From positions 124,001-188,000 of the forward strand of contig DAIDBD010000007.1 in NCBI GenBank assembly GCA_027310305.1: DNA of 64,000 nucleotides. The letters are read 5' to 3'. The notes below the pieces were generated by a model that had not been told where the DNA came from, did not search any database, and saw nothing but the letters and a program-made list of their open reading frames with translations. The position numbers and the translations under genes were made by a program. The stretch's first letter is position 1. Each line of letters opens with the position of its first letter. Shown here one piece after another: positions 62,936-64,000 of this stretch. This stretch comes from Herminiimonas sp. GTDB lineage: Bacteria > Pseudomonadota > Gammaproteobacteria > Burkholderiales > Burkholderiaceae_D.

Positions 62936-64000
62936 CTACCAGCGATCCACCGCACACGTGAGTCCTGTCGGAGTCCATACCAACGACACGGCGGGAAGGC
63001 CGCCAGCATCCTCGGCGATGTTGCGCAATGTGTTTCGGTCTATGCCCGAGTGTGGGCCGCCTTTCGGGTGGCTGTGCCAAGTTCCGATGAAGGCGAGATA
63101 CCCCAAAGAGGCTCCATTTGCCGTGCGCAAATTCTGAACAAGTCCATCCGTTCCGAGGACGAAGCGGGCGGCCTCTCGAATGCTGTCAGGCGGTGCGTCC
63201 ACGATGCCCGCAATAGTGATGGTTCGATTTTCAAACGAGATGCGGCCGACCAAGGCTCCGCCTGTTTCCAGAGCGCCCCAGCGCAACGCATCGGCATGGA
63301 TTGTTTGCGCGACCGGGTGCAGAATCCGAATGTTCCAGCCACCATCGTCAGCTACTTCGAGCACAGTGGTTGGGCCAAGGCCGGCGCGGGTCCATGCCAT
63401 GCCGAGGCCTTCGGCATCCGAGATCCCCGCGCAAAGCATCGCTTCCTTCGGAAGCCCGCCAACGAGCCAACGTTCCAGTTGCAGGCCCGCCAGTGACGCA
63501 GAACGAGAAACAACGGCATCAGACATTGGCATCGTCAGTGAACGGCAGTTGTCACCCACGAAAATGCGCGTTGGCTCAGACGTATCACCGGCAATCGACG
63601 CACGCAGTTCCGGCACAAACCGGCAGCACTCGAACAAGAATGCCGTGAGGTCGTCAACCCGACCGGCGCGACCAGGTCCTTCAAGCAAAACCGCGACACA
63701 GCGGCCCTGACCATACATCGCGATCCGTACCAGGCGAGCAGGAGACTGGTTCAGTGCTGCTGATTGTGTTTCTGCGGCTAGCACCTGAAGTGAGGCCGTT
63801 GCGTCCACGATGAGGGCTGCATCCTGCGGAACGGTTGTGGCGAACTGTGCCGGATCGACCAGGAGGGTCACAGCGTCGATGTCGAACGCGCGCGATTGAA
63901 GATGCGACAGCTCCTCAAAGGCCGTCTTCATCAGCGCCGACTTCCGAGGTGGGACCAGTACTGATGCACGCTCAATGAGTGCATGCCGTGCCGCGTTGTG
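62936..64000 (-). CDS. E1(ThiF)-like C-terminal region fused to JAB/MPN deubiquitinase-like domain, N-terminus beyond window
   Basis: Frame stays open to base 64000 (HNAARHALIERASVLVPPRKSALMKTAFEEL...); AALIVDATASLQVLAAET (ThiF-like); ETGGALVG...GTWHSHPKGGPHSGIDRNTL (JAB EXnHSHPX~10D). Confidence 0.8.
   Translation of the reverse strand, partial: HNAARHALIERASVLVPPRKSALMKTAFEELSHLQSRAFDIDAVTLLVDPAQFATTVPQDAALIVDATASLQVLAAETQSAALNQSPARLVRIAMYGQGRCVAVLLEGPGRAGRVDDLTAFLFECCRFVPELRASIAGDTSEPTRIFVGDNCRSLTMPMSDAVVSRSASLAGLQLERWLVGGLPKEAMLCAGISDAEGLGMAWTRAGLGPTTVLEVADDGGWNIRILHPVAQTIHADALRWGALETGGALVGRISFENRTITIAGIVDAPPDSIREAARFVLGTDGLVQNLRTANGASLGYLAFIGTWHSHPKGGPHSGIDRNTLRNIAEDAGGLPAVSLVWTPTGLTCAVDRW

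What the first reader, a model, noticed from the sequence alone, without database searches (positions are those of the whole stretch)
62936..64000. E1-like/JAB fusion cut by the window edge: probable prokaryotic ubiquitin-like conjugation system in an ICE
The minus-strand ORF carries a complete JAB metalloprotease signature (E...HSHP...D). The region before it resembles the C-terminal part of a ThiF/E1 domain (AALIVDATAS...). The frame stays open to base 64000, so the predicted ATG at 63931 is probably internal and the true protein longer (E1-JAB or E2-E1-JAB). E1/JAB combinations are known from bacterial ubiquitin-like and defence operons such as Bil/Bub and CBASS Cap2/Cap3. This layout is not a simple CBASS layout. 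It sits next to the relaxase at the ICE right end, a typical defence cargo site.
Basis: partly seen in the sequence, partly recalled or inferred. Interest (0 to 1): 0.8.

Follow-up and report, generated by a model that had tools for sequence, protein, structure and literature searches.

The report
6A-MBL ubiquitin-like defence cassette
The cut-off gene is the last part of a bacterial E2-E1-JAB ubiquitin-conjugation protein from a known but little-studied anti-phage system, and comparison with relatives suggests that its partner, a nuclease-like metallo-beta-lactamase-fold enzyme, is itself what gets attached to targets, through a conserved C-terminal glycine.

Summary
The gene encodes a 751-aa protein, Prok-E2_A + ThiF/E1 + JAB, with every catalytic residue present. 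With the upstream gene MBL1 it passes both curated NCBIfam models of the anti-phage "6A-MBL" system (cap2_3 555.6 bits, cut-off 320; MBL enzyme 440 bits, cut-off 220). This is operon type 6a of Iyer et al. 2006, so it is a member of a known kind and not CBASS, Bil or Bub.
Beyond the annotation:
(1) The unit is a five-gene cassette, TM262-WYL < > MBL1-Cap2_3-MBL2, found on ICEs and Acinetobacter plasmids. Neighbouring BREX-3 and relaxase are not part of it.
(2) No Ub-like gene is present. MBL1 ends in a disordered tail whose one conserved residue is a (near-)C-terminal Gly (36/36 representatives; 6/6 in a second sample; 0/13 side-MBLs). This is the signature of cGAS conjugated by CBASS Cap2, so MBL1 is probably the conjugated protein.
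(3) The remaining slot is exchangeable: three membrane-protein families or a patatin, never both (37 and 7 of 57 loci). One relative keeps WYL-MBL1-Cap2_3 at 89% DNA identity but carries a different TM/MBL pair.
Conjugation, nuclease activity and defence were not tested.

The parts
62936..64000 (-). 3' part (residues ~398-751) of cap2_3, the E2-E1-JAB triple-module gene; full gene G000:C64:186936-189191 = L003:4937-7192, 751 aa; E1 Cys549 and JAMM residues E642/H706/H708/S715/D718 lie in the window, E2 Cys101 beyond it
61820..62890 (-). MBL2, ComEC-like metallo-beta-lactamase-fold protein, 356 aa, 45 bp downstream of cap2_3; PADLOC PDC-M48B (509 bits, full length); accessory/effector-module gene of the cassette
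61818..64000 (.). In-window part of the mobile five-gene 6A-MBL cassette. Whole cassette L003:3819-10143 = C64:185818-192142: MBL2(-), cap2_3(-), MBL1(-, C64:189188-190381, 397 aa, tail ...PMPHG395-AS), divergent promoter with candidate operator GTATAGTTAATGTAC (C64:190417-190431), WYL regulator (+, C64:190471-191373), TM262 membrane protein (+, C64:191380-192168)
   Evidence: (91% DNA identity of this stretch in Acinetobacter tandoii L036)

Best explanation
This is a 6A-MBL anti-phage system (Iyer type 6a). Proposed mechanism: the JAB domain trims the C-terminal Ala-Ser of MBL1 to expose Gly395. The ThiF domain adenylates it and takes it up on Cys549, the E2 domain receives it on Cys101, and MBL1 is joined through Gly395 to a target protein. 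The JAB domain can take it off again. Thus a ComEC-like MBL-fold enzyme plays the part that the CD-NTase plays in type II CBASS: it is both the enzyme and the ubiquitin-like modifier. Conjugation is proposed to prime or localise the enzyme, and its product or action triggers a separate effector module. Here that module is membrane protein TM262 plus the second MBL (MBL2); in relatives it is another small membrane protein or a patatin phospholipase, all suited to damaging the membrane or DNA of infected cells. The divergent WYL protein is the likely repressor. Shown: gene content, domain integrity, family membership, the conserved C-terminal Gly on a disordered tail, exchange of the third slot. 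Inferred: adenylation, thioester, conjugation, JAB trimming, activation of the effector, repression, defence by this copy.
For: NCBIfam equivalogs above cut-off for both core proteins and Iyer 2006 row 6a. All E1, E2 and JAB catalytic residues are invariant in 58 representatives. MBL1: G395 is the last conserved column, 36/36; the motif is in the last 12 aa of 34/35 representatives versus 10/291 other ORFs and 0/13 MBL2-type proteins; 19/35 end exactly at Gly and the rest carry a short extension. A later sample agreed 6/6. The tail (376-397) has pLDDT under 50 while the body is confident (mean 86.6). Jenson 2023 (PMC10097602) found the same C-terminal Gly/Ala only in cGAS from Cap2/Cap3 operons and proved conjugation through it. 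MBL1 is closest to the ComEC MBL domain by sequence and fold (9ic4, E 9e-13). Third slot: 37/57 loci have a TM protein of one of three families, 7 a patatin, none both; the labels need at least 19 changes on the tree; L166 keeps WYL-MBL1-Cap2_3 at 88.8% DNA identity and swaps both flanking genes.
Against: No biochemistry. Gly-ended tails could serve another E1 reaction. In this clade Gly395 is followed by Ala-Ser, so conjugation needs prior trimming, which is assumed. 13 of 57 loci show neither a TM gene nor a patatin near by (several on short contigs), so an effector slot is not universal. TM262 and MBL2 lie on opposite sides of the core here and could be an independent passenger module. The motif for the tail count was chosen after looking (though the second sample agreed), and the Fisher tests ignore relatedness.
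Confidence: 0.65

Rival explanations
1. Membrane channel for ssDNA uptake/degradation: Csx27-like TM proteins form a channel, the ComEC-like MBL processes DNA, and the Ub-type enzymes regulate it (Makarova et al. 2019 proposal).
For: Same gene association (4TM family, competence-like MBL, Ub multidomain protein, WYL), as reported in reviews of that paper; two members of the TM262 family match the Csx27 model (best 2.5e-12); both MBLs are nearest ComEC.
Against: The TM slot is taken by patatin phospholipases in 7 loci, never together with a TM gene, and by TM families with no detectable similarity to each other; a DNA channel should not be replaceable by a phospholipase. No DNA translocation genes in the cassette.
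Confidence: 0.1
2. Cap2_3 conjugates a host sulfur carrier (ThiS/MoaD) or another unlinked Ub-like protein to targets, with MBL1 as substrate or bystander (one option in Iyer 2006).
For: No Ub-like gene in the cassette; Iyer et al. suggested that such operons may use endogenous ThiS/MoaD.
Against: Leaves unexplained why the only conserved residue of the disordered MBL1 tail is a (near-)terminal Gly in 36/36 representatives and why MBL1 is next to cap2_3 in nearly all loci.
Confidence: 0.08
3. MBL1 conjugation is right but MBL1 itself is the killing nuclease; TM262/MBL2, patatins and the like are independent neighbouring defence modules (PDC-M48 and others).
For: MBL nucleases are effectors acquired by Hachiman, AVAST and Lamassu (PMC12799240); MBL2-type + TM pairs also occur without Cap2_3 (L122) and in a helicase-containing cluster (L123); NCBIfam defines 6A-MBL with two proteins only.
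Against: TM and patatin are mutually exclusive, often overlap or abut cap2_3 on the same strand, and the five-gene unit moves as one block.
Confidence: 0.17

Closest known systems
6A-MBL anti-phage system (NCBIfam NF058523/NF058524); operon type 6a of Iyer, Burroughs & Aravind 2006
   Same: E2-E1-JAB triple-module protein with an adjacent specialised MBL protein, both above curated cut-offs
   Different: This copy also has MBL2, TM262 and a WYL regulator, which the two-protein NCBIfam definition does not include
Type II CBASS (CD-NTase, Cap2, Cap3)
   Same: E2-E1 and JAB chemistry; partner enzyme with conserved C-terminal Gly/Ala and no separate Ub-like protein; swappable effector, patatins among them
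   Different: No CD-NTase; JAB fused; the partner is an MBL-fold enzyme
Csx27-family / Ub / competence association (Makarova et al. 2019, FEMS Microbiol Lett fnz088; read only through reviews)
   Same: 4TM family, ComEC-like MBL, Ub-type multidomain protein and WYL gene together
   Different: That work predicted ssDNA uptake; the patatin replacement seen here argues for an effector slot
PADLOC candidate PDC-M48 (M48A TM protein + M48B MBL)
   Same: MBL2 is M48B; M48A-type TM genes stand in the third slot of relatives such as L067 and its cluster L086, L107 (L067 scanned directly)
   Different: TM262 itself does not match M48A; here the pair is built into a 6A-MBL cassette
Bil / Bub bacterial Ub-like systems (own knowledge)
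   Same: Ub-type conjugation and JAB enzymes in a defence context
   Different: They have a dedicated Ub-like protein and separate E1, E2 and JAB proteins

Membership tests
6A-MBL (Iyer type 6a) | Single E2-E1-JAB polypeptide | tested here: met
   NF058523 555.6 bits, cut-off 320; three Pfam domains in order
6A-MBL (Iyer type 6a) | Adjacent specialised MBL-fold protein | tested here: met
   NF058524 440 bits, cut-off 220; genes overlap by 4 bp
6A-MBL (Iyer type 6a) | Protects against phage | not testable with these tools
   Name in NCBIfam only; no source paper found in the held library
Type II CBASS | CD-NTase gene | tested here: not met
   No CD-NTase among the genes of the cassette or its neighbours
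Type II CBASS | Partner enzyme with conserved C-terminal Gly/Ala for conjugation | tested here: met
   MBL1 Gly395 in 36/36 representatives, followed by Ala-Ser in this clade; evidence that it works like CBASS conjugation, not of membership
Bil / Bub | Dedicated Ub-like protein gene | tested here: not met
   No small Ub-like ORF among the cassette genes, which abut or nearly abut
Csx27 family (for TM262) | Match to the Csx27 profile | tested here: inconclusive
   TM262 itself has no match; 2 of 27 aligned relatives do; single-linkage clustering joins them
PDC-M48 (for MBL2) | M48B MBL with M48A TM partner | tested here: inconclusive
   M48B met (509 bits); the TM partner TM262 matches no PADLOC family

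The most novel reading that the evidence does not exclude
A ComEC-like MBL-fold enzyme is a second kind of enzyme-turned-modifier in bacteria (after CBASS cyclases): it is conjugated by its C-terminal Gly through Cap2_3, and 6A-MBL is a CBASS-like platform with exchangeable membrane or nuclease effectors (Csx27-like TM, other TM families, patatins, TM+MBL pairs).
Probability: 0.55. Interest if true: 0.78.

Novelty: new member of a known kind. Interest (0 to 1): 0.56.

Why it matters
Type 6a operons have been listed since 2006 without a stated conjugation substrate in the papers I could read. A conserved terminal Gly on the partner enzyme names the likely substrate, gives exact mutants to test, and would show that attaching a defence enzyme by its tail is a general strategy and not a peculiarity of cGAS. 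The exchangeable third slot also gives a testable function to the Csx27-like membrane proteins. The cassette is mobile (ICEs, Acinetobacter plasmids), so it reaches clinical bacteria.

Tried and rejected
Membership in CBASS (no CD-NTase) and Bil/Bub (no Ub-like gene) rejected. BREX-3 as part of the system rejected: it was seen beside the cassette only in this genome, and the homologous block in another replicon stops at TM262. Fold search of TM262 gave nothing significant (best E 0.2). No relatives of Cap2_3 in the phage collection at E 1e-5. PDB sequence search with the patatin of L007 found nothing. Searches for '6A-MBL' and similar terms found no paper; Makarova 2019 and Chambers 2024 are not held, so I could not check whether the MBL1 tail has been published. 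A second attachment-site copy for the ICE was not found with certainty: one 1-mismatch match on another contig. Two first Pfam/PADLOC calls failed on a coordinate slip and were repeated.

Full report
What is there. The ORF at 62936-64000 is open to the window edge. The contig continues, and the whole gene is 751 aa with Prok-E2_A, ThiF and Prok-JAB domains in that order. It overlaps by 4 bp the upstream gene MBL1 (397 aa), and is followed after 45 bp by MBL2 (356 aa, in the window at 61820-62890). Divergent from MBL1 stand a WYL regulator (300 aa) and a membrane protein, TM262 (262 aa). Next come the genes of a BREX-3 system (BrxA, PglZ, BrxHI, PglXI), a tyrosine integrase and tRNA-Gly. On the other side is the TraI_2 relaxase.

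Known identity. NCBIfam names both core proteins as equivalogs of the 'anti-phage 6A-MBL system', well above cut-off. Iyer et al. 2006 (PMC1779556) listed exactly this as row 6a: a triple-module E2-E1-JAB protein, 'almost always next to a metallo-beta-lactamase'. It is rare: 5 of 400 genomes of the order pass the Cap2_3 cut-off and 7 of 399 of the phylum pass the MBL1 cut-off. No paper that uses the name 6A-MBL was found in the held library.

Integrity. I fetched 80 loci from named genomes and called genes with a simple ORF picker. In 58 Cap2_3 representatives the E2 Cys101 and His88, the ThiF glycines, D391, R402, K417, the E1 Cys549, and the JAB E642, H706, H708 and D718 are invariant. In MBL1 the metal-site residues H73, D77, H78, D244, H273 and H274 are conserved in 35-36 of 36. 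The locus looks intact.

The MBL1 tail. No Ub-like gene is encoded. In every one of 36 MBL1 representatives the last conserved column is a Gly (ours is Gly395...PMPHG-AS). 19 of 35 proteins end exactly there; the rest have a short extension. The motif (RAG, PHG, YG and similar) is in the last 12 residues of 34/35, against 10/291 other ORFs and 0/13 of the MBL2-type proteins (Fisher 5e-36 and 7e-11, not corrected for relatedness). Six further MBL1 genes, from genomes searched afterwards, all fit. In the AlphaFold2 model the body is confident and residues 376-397 are disordered. This is what Jenson et al. 2023 (PMC10097602) described for cGAS: a C-terminal Gly or Ala conserved only in operons with Cap2 and Cap3, and needed for conjugation. 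PMC11153139 showed reversible conjugation of a CBASS cyclase to PspA. By inference MBL1 is the protein that Cap2_3 conjugates, and the JAB domain both matures and releases it.

What MBL1 does. Sequence and fold searches put it nearest the MBL domain of ComEC (9ic4), followed by phosphorylcholine esterase, RNase J and cyclic-nucleotide phosphodiesterases. A nuclease or phosphodiesterase is likely; the substrate is open.

The third slot. Directly after cap2_3, or next to the WYL gene, most loci carry a small membrane protein of one of three families (TM262/Csx27-like, a 'GxRAFS' family, PDC-M48A). Others carry a patatin phospholipase. Of 57 non-redundant loci 37 have a TM gene, 7 a patatin and none both (chance about 3e-4 by a hand-computed hypergeometric, not corrected for relatedness). 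On the Cap2_3 tree the four labels need 19 changes. MBL2-type proteins often accompany the TM gene. Genome G120 (L166) is close to a natural swap: its DNA matches ours at 88.8% over L003:4906-9387, that is WYL-MBL1-Cap2_3 only, and it has a GxRAFS TM protein and another MBL type in place of TM262 and MBL2. In Acinetobacter tandoii the matching block is L003:3819-10143, the five genes, so the cassette moves as a unit. The core (MBL2, Cap2_3, MBL1) is on 12 Acinetobacter plasmids at 93.4% identity.

TM262 specificity. In 400 genomes of the order only five hits were found: two beside Cap2_3, one truncated remnant, one beside a broken MBL2-type gene, and one in a helicase-MBL-TM cluster. The TM+MBL pair is thus a portable module, in keeping with the PADLOC candidate PDC-M48 and with Makarova et al. 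2019 as summarised in PMC7642515 and PMC8209922.

Regulation. The MBL1/WYL divergent promoter keeps the sequence GTATAGTTAATGTAC in most close relatives, with more symmetrical versions in others (GTATAATTATTATAC in L046). It overlaps a promoter-like site and is a candidate WYL operator; this is inference.

Limits. Only the best 80 of 427 genome matches were examined; gene calls are mechanical; contigs are sometimes short; no defence or conjugation assay exists for this copy; and I could not establish whether the tail or the effector exchange has already been published.

Noticed in passing
L005:5312-5707 (G000:C125:48311-48706, -): A 131-aa remnant of the JAB end of a second Cap2_3 copy (81% identical over 108 aa), 5' truncated, next to a restriction-like helicase, a GHKL-type ATPase, a C5 methyltransferase-like ORF and AbiEii/AbiEi-like genes (neighbours judged by eye).
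   Followed up: partly
L003:10243-18600 and L004:1-4816 (G000:C64:192242-205815): A BREX-3 system (BrxA, PglZ, BrxHI, PglXI, a protein of at least 1146 aa that is probably BrxC) with what looks like its own second WYL regulator adjoins the cassette; this neighbourhood was seen in this genome only.
   Followed up: partly
window 56150-59513 (+): AbiEi_2-like and AbiEii-like genes (weak Pfam matches) followed by an AbiJ_NTD3-domain protein with a nuclease-like C-terminal region (IEVDGKHHY), between the conjugation genes and the relaxase: another defence cargo spot.
   Followed up: no
L004:7177-9413 (G000:C64:208176-210412): 641-aa tyrosine-integrase-like ORF beside tRNA-Gly (CCC): the probable right end of the element, about 22 kb past the window; a possible second attachment-site copy with 1 mismatch lies at G000:C78:11598-11616.
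   Followed up: partly
L123:2941-14571 (G350:C7): Helicase, MBL, Csx27-like TM protein and two ~1090-aa proteins (one looks like a DUF1156-type methyltransferase by eye) in one run of genes: the same TM+MBL pair inside a DNA-modification-like cluster.
   Followed up: no
L163 (G405:C1:788000-803000): A 6A-MBL locus with patatin in which Cap2_3 is reduced to a fragment and two alike 526-aa ORFs (probably an insertion sequence) lie near by.
   Followed up: no
Acinetobacter plasmids such as NZ_CP026415.1 and NZ_CP027245.2: 12 plasmid records carry MBL2-Cap2_3-MBL1 at 93.4% DNA identity, listed in PLSDB as a ThiF family adenylyltransferase and two hypothetical proteins.
   Followed up: partly
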